Of a DNA stretch of 64,000 bases, positions 34,980 through 50,238 are shown in pieces. Origin of the DNA: Fuerstiella sp. (GTDB lineage Bacteria > Planctomycetota > Planctomycetia > Planctomycetales > Planctomycetaceae); NCBI GenBank assembly GCA_022843805.1, contig JALHMY010000019.1, positions 1 to 64,000 of the forward strand. The letters are read 5' to 3'. The stretch's first letter is position 1. Each line of letters opens with the position of its first letter. The notes beneath the pieces were generated by a model. It was not told where the DNA came from. It saw nothing but the letters and a program-made list of their open reading frames with translations, and did no database searches. The translations under genes were made by a program, and so were the position numbers.

Positions 34980-35163
34980 ACGACTACCGGTCTCTGACTA
35001 CTGGCCTGTGACTCGGCAGTTTCCGTATTCATTGATTTCTAACCGAGTCCACATCAGATCTTCATCGAACAGAAGATACTTTCTTTCAGATGTGAAGGCC
35101 TCGTATTTTTGGTTCAGGCCCTGTTCCAGTGTTTGCGAACGATCATTGAGGAGTAGAGTAACG

Positions 35164-39982: not shown

Positions 39983-40642
39983 ATGATTCGTTTTGTTCTC
40001 GTAAGCGGATTCCTTGGGCTATGCGGGCTGACTCTGGTCTTTGGGTCAGAGAAGCAGTCCGGTACTGCTGTTCGCATGACTGCGTCGTTTCAGAATGGCG
40101 TCAATGATTACTCCGGCACCATCGACTCGGAGATCTGGGCTTTGGCTCCGACAACGATCCTGGATGGTAACGGTAATGCATCTGCTGATGCTGATAACGA
40201 CGGTGGTGAGAGTCAGGTGTTGCTTCGTTTTAATGACATAACAGGCCGAGACGCCCGACAGATTCCCCCAAATGCAGTGGTTCATTCAGCGCGGCTGCTG
40301 GTCAGTGCCTTCGATCAGGGCAGCACGGTGAATCTGCATCGTATGCTGGTTCCGTTTGATGAATCGGTCACCTGGAACAGCCTGGTGTCCGGTGTTTCCG
40401 CAGACGGAATGGAGGCATCTCGTCACAAAGATGCGTTCACCTTTGGAAAGATCGCGGCAAATTCGTCTGAGATCATCTTTGATGTGACCGACACAGTGCA
40501 GTTGTGGGTCAACGGTGAAACAAACCATGGCTGGGCGTTCCTGAACACAGGAGGCAATGGCTGGGACTTTTACGTGTCCGAGTTTGAGAACATCAGTCAG
40601 CGCCCAAAGCTTGTCGTGGAATACAGCGTGCCCGGTCGCTAA
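39983..40642 (+). CDS. Secreted DNRLRE-domain protein
   Basis: 219-aa exported beta-rich protein. A signal peptide ('MIRFVLVSGFLGLCGLTLVFGS') is followed by a DNRLRE domain: 'NGVNDYSGTIDSEIWA', 'SQVLLRFNDITG', 'SARLLVSAFDQGSTVNLHRML', 'TWNSLVSG', 'FDVTDTVQLWVNGETNHGWAFLNTGGNGWDF' and 'RPKLVVEYSV'. This domain is found in carbohydrate-binding and surface proteins. GAAGGAG just before the ATG is a good ribosome-binding site. It is a separate gene in the rightward run, with palindromes downstream. Confidence 0.88.
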   Translation: MIRFVLVSGFLGLCGLTLVFGSEKQSGTAVRMTASFQNGVNDYSGTIDSEIWALAPTTILDGNGNASADADNDGGESQVLLRFNDITGRDARQIPPNAVVHSARLLVSAFDQGSTVNLHRMLVPFDESVTWNSLVSGVSADGMEASRHKDAFTFGKIAANSSEIIFDVTDTVQLWVNGETNHGWAFLNTGGNGWDFYVSEFENISQRPKLVVEYSVPGR

Positions 40643-40675
40643 CCGGCTGTTTTGCTGATGGCCAAAGTTCCGAGG

Positions 40676-40747
40676 GGCAGACTTCCAGTCTGCCATTCAT
40701 TCAGAAGCCCCAATGTTTATGAATGCAACTGCAGGCTGGAAACCTGC
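40676..40747. repeat. Two short REP-like hairpins
   Basis: GGCAGACT-tcc-AGTCTGCC (40676-40694) and GCAGG-ctggaaa-CCTGC (40731-40747) lie in the spacer between the DNRLRE and DUF1501 genes. Both have the 'ttcca' or 'tggaa' core and no T-run. Confidence 0.65.
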
Positions 40748-40862
40748 CCCACAAATTGATCAGCAGACCTTTGAAAAGTCCGGTAGCAGAACAACAGCTA
40801 TTTTGGACTCAATTTCATATTTCAGATCACATTTTTGACTCGAAAGCAGCAGGAGTTTACAT

Positions 40863-42227
40863 ATGGCAAAAGCAGAAGCTGGCACATGGAATTCGGATCC
40901 TTCTCATTTTATTCCACGATCTCGGCGTAACTTTCTGTACGCGGGCTGGCTGGGCGGGCTGGGGCTCAGCATGGGCAACTTCTTCCGACTAAAAGCCGCG
41001 AGTGCCGAAGACGCTCCTGCGGGCGCCGCAGAGCCAAAAGCGAAGTCGGTTATCCATATTTATCTGCAGGGCGGATTTGCCCATATGGACAGCTTCGATC
41101 CGAAGCCGGATGCACCGATTGAGTATCGTGGTATTCTTGACAACATTTCCACGGCAGTTCCCGGCGTCCGTTTCAGCTCACATATGCAGGAAACTGCAAA
41201 GATTGCGGACAAACTGACGGTCGTGCGCAGCATGACACATACGGAGGTTGACCATGCTCGTGGTGAGCACAGCATGTTTACCGGGTATCGGCCCAGTCCG
41301 GCTCTGGTGTATCCCAGTGCGGGAAGCGTCGTCTCGCATGAACTGGGTCCTCGCGGAGCGATGCCGCCCTATGTTGTCGTTCCCACCGCTGGCAGCCAGT
41401 TTCTGGGCAGTGGCTACCTGAGCAATGCCTTTGGACCTTTTGCTCTGGGTGCCGATCCTGCTCGTACAGGGTTCTCAGTCAGAGACCTGAATCATCCGGC
41501 AGGTATCGATGATGCCCGATTCGAAACTCGCAAATCGTGGAAGGACCTTGTAGACCAGCACTTTCGGAAGCAGGGCGAAGATGATGCTCTTCGAACGATG
41601 GATGCATTTTATCAGCGAGCGTACGAACTGCTGGACTCTCCGGAATCCAAAGCCGCATTCAGCCTGAATGGTGAAACAGAGGAAACCAGGAATCTGTATG
41701 GAATGAAGCCGTGGGGACCGATTCTGCGTCCATCGGCCGGAGCACGCTTTCTGATGGCTCGTCGACTGGTGGAAGCAGGTGTTCGATTCGTCACAGTGAC
41801 ATATGGTGCGTGGGACACGCATTCGTATCACTATCGTGGAATTGAGACTCAGCTTCCTGACCTGGATAAAGCTTATGCCGGCCTGATTCAGGACCTGGAT
41901 CAGCGAGGCCTTCTGGATTCGACTCTTGTACTGATCACGAGCGAGTTTGGACGAACACCAAAGGTGAATGCGGGTGGCGGCCGTGATCACTGGCCTCGCG
42001 TTTTCAGCATCGTGATGGCTGGAGGCGGTACAAAGCGAGGGCACGTGTTCGGTGCGTCAGATGCTCTGGCAGGAGAAGTCGCCGAGATGCCTTTGTCCGT
42101 CGAGAACTATGCATCCACGGTTTACCATCTTCTGGGTATCGACGCGACGAAGTCGCTGATGTCTCCCGGCGATCGTCCGCAGTCAATCGTGATGAATGGA
42201 AAAGTCGAGAGCGACCTGCTGGCCTGA
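40863..42227 (+). CDS. DUF1501 (sulfatase-like) secreted protein with Tat-type signal
   Basis: 454-aa protein. A twin-arginine motif 'RRNFLYAGWLGG' (21-32) heads a hydrophobic stretch, indicating Tat export of a folded protein. The DUF1501 fold, related to alkaline phosphatase/sulfatase, shows 'SVIHIYLQGGFAHMDSFDPKP', 'SMTHTEVDHARGEHSMFTGYRPSP', 'VTYGAWDTHSYHYRG' and 'LVLITSEFGRTPKVNAGGGRDHWPRVFSIVMAGGGTKRG', i.e. the Asp/His positions that bind metal in the superfamily. AGGAG precedes the ATG. The family abounds in planctomycetes beside DUF1549/DUF1553 and PSCyt genes, several of which follow here. Confidence 0.95.
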   Translation: MAKAEAGTWNSDPSHFIPRSRRNFLYAGWLGGLGLSMGNFFRLKAASAEDAPAGAAEPKAKSVIHIYLQGGFAHMDSFDPKPDAPIEYRGILDNISTAVPGVRFSSHMQETAKIADKLTVVRSMTHTEVDHARGEHSMFTGYRPSPALVYPSAGSVVSHELGPRGAMPPYVVVPTAGSQFLGSGYLSNAFGPFALGADPARTGFSVRDLNHPAGIDDARFETRKSWKDLVDQHFRKQGEDDALRTMDAFYQRAYELLDSPESKAAFSLNGETEETRNLYGMKPWGPILRPSAGARFLMARRLVEAGVRFVTVTYGAWDTHSYHYRGIETQLPDLDKAYAGLIQDLDQRGLLDSTLVLITSEFGRTPKVNAGGGRDHWPRVFSIVMAGGGTKRGHVFGASDALAGEVAEMPLSVENYASTVYHLLGIDATKSLMSPGDRPQSIVMNGKVESDLLA

Positions 42228-42361
42228 GGCGGGTGAGTTCGTCGAGAAAAAGACGTGTCACACTGCTGGCATCTGGTATCTGGAGGTTCTGACATACCCA
42301 GACAGGCTTCTGCGACTGTTTCAAACAGTCGCAGAGCCACCAGAATTCAGGAGCCAGTGCG

Positions 42362-43513
42362 ATGGCAAAATACCCAAAGGCCGAGTTTGATGTCTTTATG
42401 TCTCGAGTTCGGACAGCGAATCCGACTTTTGGACGATTCCAAAAGAGTACACTCAGCCCGGTCTTAGCGATTCTTGAAAGCGATTCCGGCAGTGCGAGTA
42501 ATCTTGAGAAGGCTGTGGCTGCTCTTCCGGAAGAGACCAGATCCAAATATCGGGAGGCATTAAGGTACCTCAAATGGACTTATCCCGGGTCAGATCGGTA
42601 TTTGGGGTCGGACGCTGAAACTCTGCGGTCGCTGCTGACAAGTGCCACTGCTGGCGCACAGGCAATCCAGACTGTGCTGGACGCGATGTCAGTGCCGACT
42701 GCCCGGAAGTACGAGTCCGCATTGAAAAAGCTGATGTCGGATCGATCAGACGTCTATTATGTTGGTGTGGAGTCCTTCGATACGAGATTCACCGGAACGT
42801 CCGTAGCTGGCACAGATACTGTGAATGACCGAATCTGGTATACATCCCGGCATTTCCATGCGACCGCAGTCACTTATTCTGTGGTTCCGGCCAATACGCA
42901 ATTCGAAATTGGATTTATCCAGATCTGTTCAGCGAAGACACTGGACCATCGCTATCTGAATGACGGACTGGAGACGCGATGGCAAATGCCTGGTGGCTAT
43001 CCAAAGAGTGATAGTTCCGATGAGAGTAACATTCCGTGGTATCATGTTGGTAACGGGGTATTCTGCTCAAATTTAACGGCCGCGAGAAATCATACTCTGC
43101 AGCAGCAGGAGACGTTTGAACTTGACGACAACTTCAATAACAACAGTGCTCGTCGCAGGCTGTATTATTTAAAGGGCGGTAGCAATCAGTCAAGTTTGCT
43201 GAAGTCGATTGTGCGTAAGCAATCCTTTGTGGCATGGTTCGCCGTCAGACGGAAGAATTCCACTGCGTATCGACTTCTGAGGCGTGTCGAATATGGTTTT
43301 GACTTCCGTGTCGCAGTTCAGCATTTCGGAAACCAGACAATCGCCAGCATGGAAGAAGCAAACGTGCCGATCGTTGAATCTGTTCCGAACGCAGCGGACG
43401 CTCTGCCTGCTGAAGCGCTGAGCGGCCCAATCACTAATGATGGAGAGCAGCTCGGCGTCTTTTTGAACGGAGCCTGGTTCTGCCCCATTAATCAGACCAT
43501 TAGTCTGGCCTGA
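42362..43513 (+). CDS. Cytosolic protein with apparent FAM78-like domain
   Basis: 383-aa protein without signal peptide. Residues 1-130 are helical and charged ('SLLTSATAGAQAIQTVLDAM'). Residues about 150-325 carry landmarks that match what I recall of the animal FAM78A/B family, in the same order and spacing: 'YTSRHFHATAV' (FAM78: 'YRTPHFRASA'), 'GFIQICS' (184-190; 'GWIQACS'), 'RWQMP' (206-210; 'SWELP'), 'IPWY' (224-227; 'YPWY'), 'DDNF' (255-258; 'NDNF'), and 'RKQSFVAWF' (285-293; 'RDQSFTTWL') followed by Ser/Thr and a 'L.R.E..F..V' strand. Function is unknown in both groups. It sits between exported DUF1501 and PPC proteins, which is odd for a cytosolic protein. Confidence 0.7.
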   Translation: MAKYPKAEFDVFMSRVRTANPTFGRFQKSTLSPVLAILESDSGSASNLEKAVAALPEETRSKYREALRYLKWTYPGSDRYLGSDAETLRSLLTSATAGAQAIQTVLDAMSVPTARKYESALKKLMSDRSDVYYVGVESFDTRFTGTSVAGTDTVNDRIWYTSRHFHATAVTYSVVPANTQFEIGFIQICSAKTLDHRYLNDGLETRWQMPGGYPKSDSSDESNIPWYHVGNGVFCSNLTAARNHTLQQQETFELDDNFNNNSARRRLYYLKGGSNQSSLLKSIVRKQSFVAWFAVRRKNSTAYRLLRRVEYGFDFRVAVQHFGNQTIASMEEANVPIVESVPNAADALPAEALSGPITNDGEQLGVFLNGAWFCPINQTISLA

Positions 43514-43789
43514 GCGACAGGCACAACCGGCCGCGGCCTGACAACGTCGAAATGGCGTTGCGACGAATCAGGAATCCGACGGCCTGGCTTGCCGAGGGAT
43601 GCACGAAATTCATGCATTCCTAACCCTGCCCACATCAGATCTTCATCTCGCTGACGACACTCCGCTTTTCATTCTTCGTGAAAGTCTGAACTCGACGCTG
43701 ATAACAGCGCAGTTCGTCTTTCACGGCAATCGTGCACGCCGACGGGCGAACGATTCACGCGCGATGAGAATTCAAGGGGGTTGTCAGTG
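43514..43789. other. Spacer of about 275 bases
   Basis: No gene or clear regulatory element was recognised between the FAM78-like gene and the PPC protein gene. An open 63-codon frame at 43599-43790 has no protein-like features. Confidence 0.4.
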
Positions 43790-46213
43790 ATGTTTCGTGT
43801 GGTTTCCGTATTCTTCGTTGCGATGCTCATTCAGGTGGCGCTCTATGCTGCTCCGCCGTCTGTGGAACGGCTCTCCCCGGCGGCGGGGCAGCGGGGCACA
43901 TCGTTTTCAGTCACTGTTTTTGGGGCAGGGCTGCAAAATGCCGTTGAAGCCATGTTCTATAATTCTTCAATCACCTGTGAACGGCTTGAGCCGAAGTCAG
44001 ACAATGAGCTGATCCTGCATGTGAAGGCATCCGCCGACTGTTCTTCGGGAATGCACGCGGTGCGAATTCGTTCAGCCGAAGGTATTTCAGAGCTCCATGT
44101 CATCGGAGTCACGACACTGCCGGTCGCCGCCGAGACGGAATCCAACGACACTGCCGAGGATGCTCAGCAGATTCCGCTGAACCACACCATTGTGGGCACC
44201 ATCGAGGCGGGAGATGTCGACAGCTTTCGGGTGACACTGAAAAAGGGTGATCGGCTTTCGGCCGAAGCAGAAGCGATGCGTTCCGGCGGTTCCATGCTGG
44301 ATACCGTTCTGAACGTAATGAGCCCGTCCGGCGAGTGGCTGGCATCCGTCGATGACACTCCCCTTCGACGGCAGGATCCGCTGATTTCATTGCTGGCGCC
44401 TGTCGATGGCGACTACATCGTTCAGCTGCATGAGGCGAACTTTGAAGGCGATGAGTCCAGCCGGTATGCTCTGCATATTGGAACGTTCCCGGCTCCAAAG
44501 TTCGTTTATCCGCCTGGTGGTGAGGCGGGTCGAACTGTTGATGTGATGTTCGGCGGAGATGCCAGCGGCCCTGTCGCTCAGCAGGTCTCACTTCTGCAGG
44601 CGGCTCCGGGAACGATGGATGTCTTCTGCAATCATAATGGTCTGCTTTCTGCGACTGCACTCCCCTTTCGAGTTAGCCCGTTTGCGAATGTTCTGGAGCA
44701 GGAGCCGAATCAGGTTGCAGCCGAGTTGTCTTCCGTGGCGAATGGACTGCCTGTCGCTCTGAACGGCCTGCTGCAGGAGCCCGGAGACCTGGATTGTTTT
44801 CGAATTCGGGCGGAAGCCGGTCAGAAGTTTGATGTGGATGTGTGGGCAAGTCGACTGGGAAGCCCTGTCGACACATTGCTGGAGATTCGGGACCTGGACG
44901 GAAACATCATTGCAGCAAGCGATGACGGAATCAGTCATGACAGCCACGTTGCTGTCACTTTTCCGAAGTCCGGCGAATACATTGTACAACTGACAGATAA
45001 ACGGGGAAATGGCGGGGAAGACTACTTTTACCGAGTGGAACTTTCTCCGTTTCAGCCAGCGGTCACCGCTTTCCTTTCACGTCCCAATCGTTTGTCTCAG
45101 GAGCGTCAGTCGATCTCCGTTCCACGCGGCAATCGAGTGGTCACTTTTCTGGCTTGTCAGCGAACAGGATTTTCCGGGGATGTGCATCTTGTTGCGAGTG
45201 GTCTCCCGGAAGGTGTTCACCTGCCGGAGGCGGTAATTCCATCTGATCGATTCTGGGTTCCGATGGTCATTGAAAGTGCTCCGGACGCACCACTGGCCGG
45301 CGCTTTCGTGGATGTTGAAGCGTCTGCAGCAACCGAGTCGGTCAGTGTGACCGGACGCTTCCGTCAGGTTGTTGATCTGGTGGCCGCTTCGGCCGATCAG
45401 TTGTTTCAGTCCGTGGAAGTCGATCGGCTTGCTGTTTCAGTAATCGAAAAAGTGCCATATTCCATCAGTCTCTCCGTCCCGGCGACGAGTCTGGCGCCCG
45501 ACGGGACCCTGAATCTGGAAGTGACTGCGGTCCGGGACGACGGTTTTACCGGCCCGCTGGAAGTTTCCTTTCCGTTTTTGCCGCCATGGGTTGACGGACC
45601 TGACAAGATCATCATCGCTGCGGGTGAAACGAAAGGAACTTTCACGCTGAGAGCATGGCCGAAAGCGGCTGCTCGCACCTGGCAGGTGTGTGCCGAAGCA
45701 CGTCCGGGAGTTGATGCGCCGTCCGCTCCGGACGGAATGCGAGCAGAAACACAGGGTCGCAGTCGAAGAAAACCTGTGACCCGTCTTGCAGTGGCCTCGA
45801 ACCTTGTGGATCTGACGATTGCCGAATCTCCCGTCACCGGAGCACTCGGGACAGTTGTTGCTGAACAGGGACGCCCACAACAGCTTTTGTGCTCTCTGAA
45901 GCGACAGGGTGATCTGCCGAAAACGATGACCGCAATACTGGAAGGGCTTCCCAATCGAGTCACAGCAGAAAGCGTCTCCGTGAACTCGGATGCAGAAAGC
46001 ATTCGTTTTGAACTAAAGCCGGAAGACACGTCTCCAACCGGAACATTTTCCGATCTGATGGTGCGACTGACCGGAAAGATCGACGGACAGGAAGTGTCGT
46101 GGCGAGTTGGACGTGGCGGAGTACTGAAGATCGAGCCTTCCGGAATGCTTGTTACTGATAAAGACGGAAAGCCGCTCAGTCGACTTGATGTGCTTCGTCG
46201 CCGGAAGAACTAA
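43790..46213 (+). CDS. Secreted PPC-domain (pre-peptidase C-terminal) protein
   Basis: 807-aa exported protein from ATG 43790, with AAGGGGG nine bases upstream; the in-frame TTG 43781 is unlikely. A signal peptide (about 1-20) is followed by an IPT/TIG-like domain ('PPSVERLSPAAGQRGTSFSVTVFGAGL') and two PPC domains: 'ETESNDTAEDAQQIPLNHTIVGTIEAGDVDSFRV..KKGDRLSAE' and 'EPNQVAAELSS..NGLLQEPGDLDCFRIRAEAGQKFDVDVWA'. Several beta-sandwich domains follow. Proteins of this build commonly precede DUF1549/DUF1553 genes in planctomycetes, as here (58-base gap). Probably a cell-surface binding protein. Confidence 0.88.
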   Translation: MFRVVSVFFVAMLIQVALYAAPPSVERLSPAAGQRGTSFSVTVFGAGLQNAVEAMFYNSSITCERLEPKSDNELILHVKASADCSSGMHAVRIRSAEGISELHVIGVTTLPVAAETESNDTAEDAQQIPLNHTIVGTIEAGDVDSFRVTLKKGDRLSAEAEAMRSGGSMLDTVLNVMSPSGEWLASVDDTPLRRQDPLISLLAPVDGDYIVQLHEANFEGDESSRYALHIGTFPAPKFVYPPGGEAGRTVDVMFGGDASGPVAQQVSLLQAAPGTMDVFCNHNGLLSATALPFRVSPFANVLEQEPNQVAAELSSVANGLPVALNGLLQEPGDLDCFRIRAEAGQKFDVDVWASRLGSPVDTLLEIRDLDGNIIAASDDGISHDSHVAVTFPKSGEYIVQLTDKRGNGGEDYFYRVELSPFQPAVTAFLSRPNRLSQERQSISVPRGNRVVTFLACQRTGFSGDVHLVASGLPEGVHLPEAVIPSDRFWVPMVIESAPDAPLAGAFVDVEASAATESVSVTGRFRQVVDLVAASADQLFQSVEVDRLAVSVIEKVPYSISLSVPATSLAPDGTLNLEVTAVRDDGFTGPLEVSFPFLPPWVDGPDKIIIAAGETKGTFTLRAWPKAAARTWQVCAEARPGVDAPSAPDGMRAETQGRSRRKPVTRLAVASNLVDLTIAESPVTGALGTVVAEQGRPQQLLCSLKRQGDLPKTMTAILEGLPNRVTAESVSVNSDAESIRFELKPEDTSPTGTFSDLMVRLTGKIDGQEVSWRVGRGGVLKIEPSGMLVTDKDGKPLSRLDVLRRRKN

Positions 46214-46271
46214 GAACCCTGATCGTTCTTACTCATAACATTATCATGCTCTTTGTCACTGGAATACTCGG

Positions 46272-48716
46272 ATGAAATTGAATTATTTGATTGCGATCCT
46301 GACGCTGATGGTGCCATCCATCGTTGCCGCGCAGGACGCACGGACCACAGACTCCGCACAAACGGCCACTTCGCTTGCCGCATATCCATCGAAAGTCGTG
46401 CTTTCCGATGCCAGCGACTGGCAGCGAATGCTGATTCTTGCATCACGCCCCGATGGAAGCACAAAAGACGTCACTGAATCCGCTGTTTTCAGCGTCAGTG
46501 ACTCAGCAGTTTTGAAGCTGGAAGACGGGATCGCCCAGCCAGTGGCTAACGGAACCTGCGAGATCACCGTGTTGGTCGATGACCGGCAACTTATTGTTCC
46601 GGTGATTGTCTCGGGCGCGGATGTGACTCCGGATCTCAGTTTTCGAACGGATGTTCTTGCGACACTGACCAAGGCAGGCTGTAACACAGGAAAGTGCCAT
46701 GGTTCCGCATCGGGCAAAGATGGCTTTCGTCTGAGCCTGTTCGGATACGATCCGGCCGGAGATCATTATCGACTGACGCGGGAATTACCGGGCAGACGGA
46801 TCAATCTGATTGCTCCAAAGGACAGTCTGTTGATCAACAAGGCACTCGGAAACGTGGATCACACCGGAGGTCAGCTGATCGTGGAAGATTCTCCGGAGTT
46901 TGAAACACTGATTTCCTGGATGCAAAAAGGGGCTCCGGCAGATCCGGCGGAGATGCCTGTGCCAACTGCTATTCGAGTCTTTCCGGAAGAAGCCGTCTTT
47001 GCCACGAAAGGCGAGAATCAGCGTTTGATGGTCATGGCCAGTTTTAGTGATGGTTCTGATCGGGATGTCACAGACCGCGCCGTGTTTATCAGCAACAATG
47101 ATGCGGTGGCGAGTGTAACGGACGATGGAGAAGTGGGCTCCAATGGTGCGGGCTCAGCATTCATCATGGCGAGATTCGATCAGTTCACTGAAGGCTGTTC
47201 GATCATCGTTCGGCCAGGTAAACCCTATAAACAGCCAAACCTGGTCGCGAACAACTATGTGGACGAACTGGTTCAGGCACGCTGGAGAGATCTGCATCTT
47301 CTGCCGTCGGAGGTGTGCTCGGATGAAGTGTTCCTGAGACGTGCTTATATTGACCTGATCGGGCTGCTTCCATCGCCCCAGGAAAGAGAAGCATTTCTGG
47401 CCGATACGTCGGTCGATAAACGAGTCCGCCTGGTTGATGCTCTGGTGGAACGCCCGGAGTTTCAGGACATGTGGGTGATGAAGTGGGCAGAGATGCTGCA
47501 GATCCGAACGGTGAATGGAGTCAGCCCCAAAGGTCTTCAGCTTTACGATCGCTGGCTGCGCGACCGCATTCATTCGGGCGTCACCATTGATCAGGTCGTG
47601 CAGGAGCTGATTCCGGCGACGGGCGGAACATTCGACAATCCGGCAACCAGCTACTATCAGACGGAAACAACGCCACAGTTGCTCGCGGAGAATATGGCTC
47701 AGGCGTTTCTTGGGACACGGATTCAGTGTGCTCAGTGTCACAACCACCCGTTTGATCGCTGGACCATGGACGACTATTACGGCTTTGCCGCCTTCTTCAG
47801 TCAGGTCGGATACAAGCAGGCACAGGATCCTCGTGAAATCATGATCTACAATGCGGCGACAGGCAGCCTGAAGCATCCTGTAGATGATCGCCCGGTCGTT
47901 CCGACATATCTGGGTGCGGGCCGGGCAAGTCTTCCTGCCGGATCCGATTATCGGGAGGTGCTGGCTCGCTGGCTTGCCTCGGACGAAAACCCGGCTTTCG
48001 CAGAGAATCTTTCGAACGTTGTGTGGGCACACTTCTTCGGGATCGGCATTGTTGACCCGGTGGATGATATCCGAGTCAGCAATCCTCCTTCGAATCCCGC
48101 ACTGCTGCATCGGCTTGGGAAAAAACTGTCAGAATATCAGTATGACATTAAACCACTGGTTCGTGATCTGTGCGCATCACAGACTTATCAGCTTTCCACA
48201 ACTCGAAACGAATCGAATGCCCTTGATGAACGACATTTTTCTCACGGCCGTATTCGTCGTATGCGGGCCGAAGTGCTGCTGGACTGCCTGAATCAGGTAA
48301 CAGAAACGACCGTCGAGTTTCGAGGACTTCCGTCGGGCAGCCGAGCCGTTCAGGTAGCGGACGGCGCGACTCCCAACTATTTCCTGACAACTTTTGGCCG
48401 TGCCTCACGGGCGACAGCCTGCTCCTGTGAAGTAAAAACCTCACCGACGTTGTCACAGGCTTTGCATTTGCTGAATGGTGAATCCACAACCGGCAAGATA
48501 CTGGAAGGTGGAGTTGTCAATCGCCTGCTGGCTGAGAACTCTGATCCCATGGCTGCTGTCACATCGCTCTATGAACGCTGCCTTTGCCGTCAGCCGACCG
48601 CAGAAGAAGCTGCGGCCATACGTGAGCGTCTTCAGGGCAATCAGGACATAAAGACGTCGCTCGACGATCTGTTCTGGGCACTGCTGAATTCCAACGAATT
48701 TGTCTTCAATCACTGA
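46272..48716 (+). CDS. Secreted DUF1549/DUF1553 protein with Ig-like and cytochrome-like motifs
   Basis: 814-aa exported protein. After the signal peptide come a Big_2-like domain ('YPSKVVLSDASDWQRMLILASRPDGSTKDVTESAVFSVSDSAV'), a cytochrome-like stretch with a CX4CH motif ('AGCNTGKCHGSASGKDGFRLSLFGYDP'), a second Big_2-like domain, and then DUF1549 ('VDELVQARWRDLHLLPSEVCSDEVFLRRAYIDLIGLLPSP', 'CAQCHNHPFDRWTMDDYYGFAAFF' with CXXCH). DUF1553 closes it ('NVVWAHFFGIGIVDPVDDIRVSNPPSNPALL'). This protein family is nearly restricted to planctomycetes and relatives; the function is unknown but haem binding is plausible. Confidence 0.93.
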   Translation: MKLNYLIAILTLMVPSIVAAQDARTTDSAQTATSLAAYPSKVVLSDASDWQRMLILASRPDGSTKDVTESAVFSVSDSAVLKLEDGIAQPVANGTCEITVLVDDRQLIVPVIVSGADVTPDLSFRTDVLATLTKAGCNTGKCHGSASGKDGFRLSLFGYDPAGDHYRLTRELPGRRINLIAPKDSLLINKALGNVDHTGGQLIVEDSPEFETLISWMQKGAPADPAEMPVPTAIRVFPEEAVFATKGENQRLMVMASFSDGSDRDVTDRAVFISNNDAVASVTDDGEVGSNGAGSAFIMARFDQFTEGCSIIVRPGKPYKQPNLVANNYVDELVQARWRDLHLLPSEVCSDEVFLRRAYIDLIGLLPSPQEREAFLADTSVDKRVRLVDALVERPEFQDMWVMKWAEMLQIRTVNGVSPKGLQLYDRWLRDRIHSGVTIDQVVQELIPATGGTFDNPATSYYQTETTPQLLAENMAQAFLGTRIQCAQCHNHPFDRWTMDDYYGFAAFFSQVGYKQAQDPREIMIYNAATGSLKHPVDDRPVVPTYLGAGRASLPAGSDYREVLARWLASDENPAFAENLSNVVWAHFFGIGIVDPVDDIRVSNPPSNPALLHRLGKKLSEYQYDIKPLVRDLCASQTYQLSTTRNESNALDERHFSHGRIRRMRAEVLLDCLNQVTETTVEFRGLPSGSRAVQVADGATPNYFLTTFGRASRATACSCEVKTSPTLSQALHLLNGESTTGKILEGGVVNRLLAENSDPMAAVTSLYERCLCRQPTAEEAAAIRERLQGNQDIKTSLDDLFWALLNSNEFVFNH

Positions 48717-48774
48717 TTTCGCACCTGATTGCTCAGCGATCCGGGCAGTCGTTCTGCATAAGGTTAATTGACGA

Positions 48775-50238
48775 ATGTTTATGAATCCTCACATCATCCG
48801 TATCGTGATGTTGTTAGCGGCAATTCTGCCGGCTCATTCCACAGTATTCGCGCAGGCTCCGGAGTCGAAGGAAGTTACCTGGGATCAGGTGAAGCCCGTT
48901 TTTCAGAAACGCTGTTTCGCGTGTCACCGCGGGGAACAGTCACGCGGTGGTCTGGACCTGTCCACTGTGGGAGGAATTAAGGCGGGATCCACTTCCGGCG
49001 CCGCCGTTGTGGCGGGTAAACCGGAACAGAGCATGATTTATACTCTGCCCGCTCATCTCGAAAATCCTCAGATGCCTCCCAACAGTGCAAAACTGCCCCA
49101 GCGGGAACTGGACCTGATTTATGGATGGATTCAGGGAGGACTCTCGGAAAAAGTGACAGTGGCCAGTGCCGCTGGCTCAGGAGCTTCGAGGCCTTCGAGA
49201 CCCGTTATGAATCGGCCGAAAACTCTTTCGATGCGTCCCGCAATGCCCAAAACCAGAACTGTCATGGAGGCGTCAGCAGACTCGTCCGCAGGGAATGCTG
49301 CCGATGCGTCGGCGGACAAAAAGGGGGATTTGAAGAAGACGGTTAAGACCCTGTCACACATGGTGACCGCCGTTGCCGCAAGTCCCACGGCCTCTCTGGT
49401 CGCTGTTGCCGGGCATCGGGAAGTGACGATTTTCCAGTGGACGGACCAGTCACGGGTAACATCCATCCCTTTTCCGGCCGGAGATATTTTTGTTCTGCGT
49501 TTTTCACGGGATGGAAGCGTGTTGCTGGTCGGCGGAGGAATTGGCGGAGTATCCGGAAAAACGATGGGCTTTGACGTCGCAACCGGGGCTGTGGTGTTTG
49601 AAACCGGTGAGGAATCCGATGTGGTGCTCGCTGCGGATATCTCTCCAAACGGGATGCTGGTTGCGGTGGGTGGTCCTTCCCGGCTGGTGAGAATTTACAA
49701 TACCGTGACCGGTGAAAAAGTTGCCGACATTCGGCGACATACGGACTGGATTCTTTCTGCAGCATTCAGCAATGACGGACTGCTTCTGGCGACTGGTGAT
49801 CGCTTCGGAAGTGTACAGATATGGGAAGCCGCAACAGGATCGCCATTCCATACTCTGCGTGGTCATTCGGGAGCAATTCACGAGCTCCAGTGGGCAGCAG
49901 ACTCCAACACAGCAATTTCCGCCAGTGAAGACGGCACTCTTCGAATCTGGGATATGCATGAAGGCGTTCAGCGTCAGGTATTGCCCGGTGAAGTCGGCGG
50001 AATTCTGGCGACTGACGCGGAGGCAACCGGTCGATTCATCGCAGGTGGTCGTGCGGGAAAGATTCGAGTGTGGAACAGTCCAGGTAATCTGCAGCGGGAG
50101 ATCACCATGGCCGACGAGGTGACGACACTGGCGATCACTCAGGATGGGACACACGTGATTGCCGCAGATGTGACCGGCAATGTGGAGTTATACAATCTCG
50201 AATCCGGAAAAAATGTCGGGACGTTTGTTCTGCCATAA
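48775..50238 (+). CDS. Secreted PSCyt1-type cytochrome c domain fused to WD40 propeller
   Basis: 487-aa exported protein. A signal peptide leads into a planctomycete cytochrome C domain: 'VFQKRCFACHRGEQSRGGLDLST' with CXXCH haem motif, then 'PEQSMIYTLPAHLENPQMPPNSAKLPQRELDLIYGWIQGG' with a candidate distal Met. After a Pro/Ser/Ala-rich linker (about 150-190) WD40 repeats follow, such as 'RHTDWILSAAFSNDGLLLATGDRFGSVQIWEAATG' and 'GHSGAIHELQWAADSNTAISASEDGTLRIWDM'. It lies 58 bases after the DUF1549/1553 gene, so probably in one transcript. A secreted haem protein with an interaction scaffold. Confidence 0.93.
   Translation: MFMNPHIIRIVMLLAAILPAHSTVFAQAPESKEVTWDQVKPVFQKRCFACHRGEQSRGGLDLSTVGGIKAGSTSGAAVVAGKPEQSMIYTLPAHLENPQMPPNSAKLPQRELDLIYGWIQGGLSEKVTVASAAGSGASRPSRPVMNRPKTLSMRPAMPKTRTVMEASADSSAGNAADASADKKGDLKKTVKTLSHMVTAVAASPTASLVAVAGHREVTIFQWTDQSRVTSIPFPAGDIFVLRFSRDGSVLLVGGGIGGVSGKTMGFDVATGAVVFETGEESDVVLAADISPNGMLVAVGGPSRLVRIYNTVTGEKVADIRRHTDWILSAAFSNDGLLLATGDRFGSVQIWEAATGSPFHTLRGHSGAIHELQWAADSNTAISASEDGTLRIWDMHEGVQRQVLPGEVGGILATDAEATGRFIAGGRAGKIRVWNSPGNLQREITMADEVTTLAITQDGTHVIAADVTGNVELYNLESGKNVGTFVLP

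What the first reader, a model, noticed from the sequence alone, without database searches (positions are those of the whole stretch)
42362..43513. Bacterial protein resembling the animal FAM78 family
Six short landmarks occur in the order and approximate spacing I recall for human FAM78A/B: (Y)xxxHFxA, G(F/W)IQxCS, (R/S)W(Q/E)(M/L)P, PWY, DNF and QSFxxW, followed by a closing strand. FAM78 is a family of unknown function that I know only from animals. A homologue of this kind in a planctomycete, with an added N-terminal helical domain and lying inside a cluster of exported DUF1501/DUF1549/cytochrome proteins, would be new and could hint at the ancestral function.
Basis: partly seen in the sequence, partly recalled or inferred. 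Interest (0 to 1): 0.85.

Follow-up and report, generated by a model that had tools for sequence, protein, structure and literature searches.

The report
Bacterial relative of animal FAM78 proteins
A bacterium carries a protein that looks related to FAM78, an animal protein family of unknown function, and more distant relatives form the end of larger proteins in a few other bacteria, so the family may be older and wider than animals.

Summary
The ORF at 42362-43513 (+, 383 aa) is coding and holds the six landmarks in order. No Pfam, NCBIfam, PHROGs, PADLOC or PDB-sequence entry matches it significantly. Against a human FAM78 sequence recalled from memory (261 aa, taken as FAM78B), residues 160-364 align at 22% identity, 0 of 2,000 shuffles as good; among 2,199 ORFs it is the best hit (E 3.5e-6, next 0.74). 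A query+FAM78 profile led to five further domains in three genomes of the phylum, C-terminal in Fn3 proteins. Their profile alone hits recalled FAM78B at E 3.9e-8, but the window ORF only at 0.43; with FAM78B added, 8.9e-6. The gene is an extra between DUF1501 and PPC genes; six of six homologous operons examined lack it, so its neighbours say little about function. Single-sequence AlphaFold models failed. Best reading: a remote bacterial FAM78 homologue, probably a non-enzymatic binding module fused to helical repeats. The homology is provisional on the recalled sequence; the mechanism is inferred.

The parts
42362..43513 (+). FAM78-like gene, 383 aa
   Evidence: codon usage in frame
42362..42751 (+). 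N-terminal helical region (residues about 1-130) with two weakly similar stretches (residues 36-70 and 90-124)
   Evidence: repeat score 42 against 22.6 +- 4.6, 6 of 2,000 shuffles as good, borders chosen by eye; helices in a low-confidence model
42827..43477 (+). FAM78-like domain (profile match 42851-43477; alignment row starts at residue 156)
42839..42862 (+). landmark YxxxHFxA (residues 160-167)
42911..42931 (+). landmark GFIQICS (residues 184-190); G184 and Q187 agree with FAM78B and the bacterial majority
42977..42991 (+). landmark RWQMP (residues 206-210)
43034..43042 (+). landmark PWY (residues 225-227)
43127..43135 (+). landmark DNF (residues 256-258); D256 is invariant in alignment A3
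43220..43237 (+). landmark QSFVAW (residues 287-292); W292 is invariant in alignment A3
43427..43441 (+). C-terminal PITND (residues 356-360); P356, N359 and D360 agree with FAM78B and the bacterial majority
42309..42335 (.). 27-base near-perfect palindrome in the leader, no T run after it
   Evidence: the 134-base leader folds at z -5.8
42228..43780 (+). 1,553 bases between the DUF1501 and PPC genes, against 79-210 bases between the same two tblastn matches in six homologous operons

Best explanation
The gene encodes a bacterial member of a FAM78-like domain superfamily. Its C-terminal 225 residues or so are homologous to animal FAM78 (shown by sequence statistics, with the animal sequence recalled) and, more distantly, to a C-terminal domain of Fn3 proteins in a few genomes of the same phylum (shown only with FAM78B as the link). 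A helical-repeat N-terminus is added. The protein probably stays in the cytoplasm (inferred: no signal or membrane segment). It most likely acts as a non-enzymatic, beta-rich binding module, with the helical part contacting a second partner (inferred). The gene is an accessory insertion between the DUF1501 and PPC genes of a conserved operon and may be co-transcribed with them (inferred), so the operon is its site rather than its pathway.
For: Recalled FAM78B as query: the window ORF is the best of 2,199 ORFs (E 3.5e-6; next 0.74); the reverse search gives 2.2e-6. Smith-Waterman 109 against shuffles 32.4 +- 4.8, 0 of 2,000 as good. Profile of five bacterial domains, holding neither FAM78 nor the query: recalled FAM78B at E 3.9e-8. 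Bacterial domains plus FAM78B, without the query: window ORF at E 8.9e-6, best reversed decoy 1.9, 4,405 sequences. hhalign of the bacterial profile with query+FAM78B: probability 95, E 3.6e-8. Fifteen columns agree across query, FAM78B and the bacterial majority. Insertion: six of six homologous operons examined lack the gene.
Against: The human sequence is recalled, not fetched. Without FAM78B the bacterial domains link only weakly to the window protein: hhalign E 0.002, probability 14; five-domain profile E 0.43, ranked third; one domain against the query 44, with 71 of 2,000 shuffles as good; the window's genome had no match to that domain. A query+FAM78B profile finds only two of the five bacterial proteins clearly (E 3.9e-6 and 3.8e-4), a third at 0.052, the other two not at all, with reversed decoys from 0.36. 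The subsets were cut from an alignment that had included the left-out sequences, a mild leak. No fold evidence: pLDDT 32 and 28. The binding role is read from the kind of conserved residues only.
Confidence: 0.62

Rival explanations
1. Transfer from an animal or another eukaryote: the host took up a FAM78 gene and fused it to a helical part.
For: The gene is a lone insertion; of 196 other near relatives only two weak matches appeared, both rejected by eye. C189, W226, N257, Q287 and S288 are shared with FAM78B and absent from all five bacterial domains.
Against: Only 21.6% identity to FAM78B over 199 columns, about as far as FAM78B is from the bacterial domains (16.0-25.4%). FAM78B shares 12 columns with the bacterial majority and not the query, 11 with the query and none of the bacterial domains. 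Codon usage fits the host.
Confidence: 0.2
2. Bacterial origin of animal FAM78: the domain is an old, rare bacterial module that an animal ancestor acquired; the window protein is the closest bacterial form seen here.
For: Bacterial members exist in two unlike architectures, and these two forms are at least as far from each other (14.7-19.4% identity) as each is from FAM78B (21.6%; 16.0-25.4%).
Against: Few bacterial members: 3 of 391 other genomes of the phylum and 0 of 837 in four samples centred elsewhere, which held no positive control. No eukaryotic collection was open to me, so the eukaryotic spread is unknown.
Confidence: 0.35
3. Chance or convergent similarity, helped by a recalled sequence that might have been bent towards the query.
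For: I wrote the human sequence after reading the query; the link from query to the other bacterial domains is weak without it.
Against: The recalled sequence also matches five bacterial domains found later, by a profile that excluded both it and the query (E 3.9e-8). Those domains were found with a profile that held the recalled sequence, but their own letters owe nothing to it. No shuffle or decoy comes near.
Confidence: 0.1
4. An operon-specific accessory factor of the DUF1501/PPC/DUF1549 machinery.
For: Same strand, inside the operon.
Against: Six of six homologous operons examined, one of them in the same genome, are without it; those neighbours are exported by my recalled knowledge of the families, this protein shows no export signal by hydropathy.
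Confidence: 0.1

Closest known systems
FAM78A/FAM78B (animal family of unknown function; recalled as PANTHER PTHR31655 / InterPro IPR029638)
   Same: Similar over about 200 residues with G(F/W)IQxC, W(Q/E)(M/L)P, PWY, DNF, QSFxxW and a C-terminal P-x-x-N-D in the same order.
   Different: 22% identity; added N-terminal helical part; starts MAKYPK, whereas recalled FAM78B starts MGCIQS (a lipidation-like start); in a bacterium.
C-terminal domain of Fn3 proteins in genomes G208, G256, G405 (unnamed; no Pfam model)
   Same: Shares G184, Q187, Y198, P225, D256, F289, W292, L306, P356, N359, D360 as majority residues; W..G(Y/F)(L/I)(Q/E)N, W(L/F)(I/V)AxN and a PLxxD end among themselves.
   Different: PWY and DNF are reduced to P and D; it ends a larger protein with fn3 and in part FIMAH domains that has a conserved neighbour gene; 14.7-19.4% identity to the window protein.
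DUF1501-PPC-DUF1549 operon (PF07394 and PF04151; the DUF1549 label is recalled)
   Same: Genomic neighbours.
   Different: Not the same family by Pfam; the operon occurs without this gene in six of six places examined.

Membership tests
FAM78 (animal) | Significant sequence similarity over the FAM78 domain | tested here: met
   E 3.5e-6 and 2.2e-6 among 2,199 ORFs; 0 of 2,000 shuffles as good. The animal sequence was recalled, so this stays provisional.
FAM78 (animal) | N-terminal MGC...S start of FAM78B (recalled; not known to be obligatory) | tested here: not met
   The protein starts MAKYPK. I therefore call it a remote homologue and not a FAM78A/B orthologue.
FAM78 (animal) | Same three-dimensional fold | not testable with these tools
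FAM78 (animal) | Hit to the curated family model (PANTHER/InterPro) | not testable with these tools
   Those libraries are not on hand; Pfam has no hit for the query domain or for recalled FAM78B
FAM78-like superfamily with the bacterial Fn3-protein domains | Profile similarity of the window protein to the five bacterial domains without help of FAM78B | tested here: inconclusive
   E 0.43, hhalign E 0.002 with probability 14; significant only with FAM78B in the profile, E 8.9e-6

The most novel reading that the evidence does not exclude
FAM78 is the animal branch of an old bacterial domain superfamily, whose other bacterial members end Fn3 proteins that are probably secreted and have a dedicated partner; animals took the domain from bacteria and lipid-anchored it inside the cell, and the window protein is the cytoplasmic bacterial form nearest to it.
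Probability: 0.3. Interest if true: 0.75.

Novelty: new variant of a known kind. Interest (0 to 1): 0.6.

Why it matters
FAM78A and FAM78B are human proteins without a function known to me. The papers that I saw as listings are expression, methylation, association and similar studies by title and abstract start, and none of the listings seen joins FAM78 to bacteria by title. Bacterial relatives offer a smaller, experimentally easier member and an alignment of distant sequences that shows which residues are kept (G184, Q187, Y198, D256, W292, N359, D360), so that structure and binding tests become possible. The second architecture, on Fn3 proteins with a conserved neighbour gene, suggests a binding role that can be tested.

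Tried and rejected
Pfam, NCBIfam, PHROGs, PADLOC and PDB-sequence searches gave no relative. The best PDB E-values were 0.49 and 0.42; one PHROGs match at E 0.28 to a bacterial domain was ignored.

Weak matches dropped after reading the ORFs by eye: G117 (stop inside), G018 (sulfatase-like ORF), G227 (acetyltransferase-like ORF), G369 (stop inside, E 0.0054).

Motif-pattern scans. Genome contigs: 51 stretches, one open in frame and without GxIQxC, none similar to the protein by tblastn at E up to 1. Viral contigs: 9 stretches (one open in frame, ribonucleotide-reductase-like by eye); 7 (one open in frame, no profile match); 34 (of the 25 new ones none open in frame and no profile match). The search for related loci in viral contigs found nothing. 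The genome contigs pattern asks for WY, DNF and a QxF with S, T, C, R or W in the middle at set spacing, so members of the Fn3 type would be missed; it does not show absence.

Phages and plasmids: three Mesorhizobium matches at E 5-7 and one Salmonella match at E 0.9, ignored; no match.

AlphaFold on the whole protein and on residues 136-383, single sequence: unusable, so no fold search was run.

Mobile-element origin of the insertion: besides the palindrome, self-comparison showed only short inverted matches of 14 and 22 bases; no copy of the flanks in the 412 kb of the same genome outside the window that I had fetched, and one 40-base, 85% match inside the window at 35027-35066.

Operon comparison: I took six of the places listed (92 of 99 genomes had a match to the PPC protein), most of them high-scoring; the rest were not examined.

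Full report
Observation. The window ORF 42362-43513 (+) is intact, has a ribosome-binding-like AGGAG 8 bases before its ATG and codes in frame by the codon usage of neighbouring genes. A degenerate DNA pattern for three of them with their spacing occurs once in the window and in none of 100 shuffles.

Known families. Nothing in Pfam, NCBIfam, PHROGs, PADLOC or the PDB sequences matches the protein significantly. Pfam has no hit for recalled FAM78B either, so an empty Pfam result does not count against the idea.

Link to FAM78. I compared the protein with a human FAM78 sequence written from memory. Its 261 residues fit the length that I recall for FAM78B. BLASTP aligned query residues 160-364 with residues 44-245 at 22% identity. 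The Smith-Waterman score was 109, against 32.4 +- 4.8 for shuffles, with 0 of 2,000 as good. Among 2,199 stop-to-stop ORFs of 80 aa or more (window plus 400 kb of the same genome), recalled FAM78B picked this ORF first at E 3.5e-6, the next being at 0.74; the reverse search gave 2.2e-6.

Check with later sequences. A profile of query plus FAM78B (A1), searched in 392 genomes of the phylum, gave the window's own genome and three weak matches, in G208, G227 and G256. The one in G208 (L006) read by eye as the same domain. It scored 80 against FAM78B, shuffles 33.2 +- 5.2, 0 of 2,000 as good; against the query only 44, with 71 of 2,000 as good. Searching 392 genomes with it gave G208, G256 (two copies), G405 (two copies) and a rejected match in G369; the window's own genome did not match. 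A profile of these five bacterial domains, which holds neither FAM78 nor the query, hits recalled FAM78B at E 3.9e-8 in the ORF background; the window ORF comes third at E 0.43. I wrote the human sequence before seeing those domains, so this match argues that the recall is sound. The domains were, however, found with a profile that held it.

Further profile tests (405 sequences with reversed decoys). Bacterial domains plus FAM78B reach the window ORF at E 8.9e-6, best decoy 1.9. Bacterial domains plus query reach FAM78B at 1.7e-15, best decoy 1.4. Query plus FAM78B reach two of the five bacterial proteins at 3.9e-6 and 3.8e-4, a third at 0.052, the other two not at all, best decoy 0.36. These subsets were cut from an alignment made with all seven rows, a mild leak. 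hhalign of the bacterial profile gives E 3.6e-8, probability 95, against query+FAM78B, but E 0.002, probability 14, against the query alone.

Topology. In alignment A3, 15 columns agree across query, FAM78B and bacterial majority. Eleven are shared by query and FAM78B and absent from all five bacterial domains; 12 by FAM78B and the bacterial majority only; 6 by query and the bacterial majority only. Identities are 21.6% (query-FAM78B), 14.7-19.4% (query-bacterial) and 16.0-25.4% (FAM78B-bacterial); the bacterial domains are 31-36% identical to the first of them. The three lines are about equally far apart, which speaks against a recent transfer from an animal and for an old split, but seven sequences cannot settle direction.

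Distribution. The window's genome has one copy. Of 196 other near relatives none has a credible copy. In the order of G256, 3 of 9 genomes have the Fn3-type domain. Ten genomes reached through loci gave none. In four phylum samples centred on genomes of loci titled Halobeggiatoa, Kiritimatiellae, Kastovskya and Haliscomenobacteraceae, 0 of 279, 194, 166 and 198 matched; these runs held no positive genome, so they are weak evidence of absence. A strict motif scan of genome contigs returned 51 stretches, none of them a relative.

Other architecture. The five bacterial domains end ORFs of 604-687 aa (stop to stop; two run off a contig end). Of three scanned, all have fn3 and two have FIMAH domains. 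Beside each lies a 353-467 aa gene of one family (alignment A4); four of its six members were scanned and have no Pfam hit at E 0.01. That these proteins are secreted is inferred from fn3/FIMAH and from the hydrophobic starts of some neighbours; I saw no clear signal peptide on the Fn3 ORFs themselves.

Site. DNRLRE-like (recalled label), DUF1501, PPC and DUF1549 genes lie in the same order in G055, G001, G037, G035, G145 and in a second copy on contig C35 of the same genome; the WD40/cytochrome-type gene follows in five of the six, the G145 stretch ending before it. In all six the DUF1501 match is followed by the PPC match after 79-210 bases, and neither the A3 profile nor the single sequence finds the FAM78-like gene there. 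In the window that gap is 1,553 bases and holds the gene. Its GC is 50.6% against 53.0-56.1% for the neighbours, a mild difference. A 27-base near-palindrome lies in the leader; the 134-base leader folds at z -5.8, and no terminator-like T run was found. Because both flanks belong to the operon, on a 109,862-base contig, contamination is unlikely.

Mechanism. Shown: similarity to FAM78 (provisional on the recalled sequence); a weakly repetitive N-terminus; no signal or membrane segment (largest 19-residue hydropathy mean 0.54 near the N-terminus and 1.01 overall); an extra gene inside a conserved operon. Inferred: a beta-rich domain, from reading the sequence, since both models are unusable; no evident catalytic set, the shared residues being mostly aromatic, Gly, Pro, Leu and Asn/Asp; hence a binding or scaffold module rather than an enzyme. 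I put about 0.5 on a binding role within the homology reading.

Literature. FAM78A: 58 papers, 15 seen as listings. FAM78B and family identifiers: 57 papers, 30 seen as listings, none of those 30 with the identifiers. FAM78A with function terms: 7 listings, none of which holds FAM78A. FAM78 as a whole word: 4 listings, none on a bacterial homologue by title. A search combining FAM78 with bacteria, transfer, planctomycete and homolog: 8 of 531 seen as listings, none of which holds FAM78. I read no paper's text.

Noticed in passing
L111, L112, L113, L114, L115 (G208, G256, G405): Each Fn3 ORF with the FAM78-like C-terminus lies directly beside a 353-467 aa gene of one family (alignment A4, ending EWxKxVxKIF); some have lipoprotein-like starts by eye, four of six members scanned have no Pfam hit: a possible two-gene unit.
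   Followed up: partly
L111:2303-3031 and L111:6079-6834: Two 243- and 252-aa ORFs with nearly the same C-terminus (ETKKKNLxDAITKFKEELKSGAxNK) flank the Fn3 gene and its neighbour in G208; the second has no Pfam hit.
   Followed up: no
window 42309-42335: 27-base near-perfect palindrome in the leader of the gene; no other copy in the window at up to 3 mismatches.
   Followed up: partly
window 43608-43647 and 35027-35066: 40-base stretches 85% alike, one downstream of the gene and one near the start of a DUF1559-like ORF (label recalled); possibly a small dispersed repeat.
   Followed up: no
window 39983-50238 and G000:C35: The genome carries a second copy of the DNRLRE-like/DUF1501/PPC/DUF1549/WD40 gene order on contig C35, 42-70% identical by gene.
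   Followed up: no
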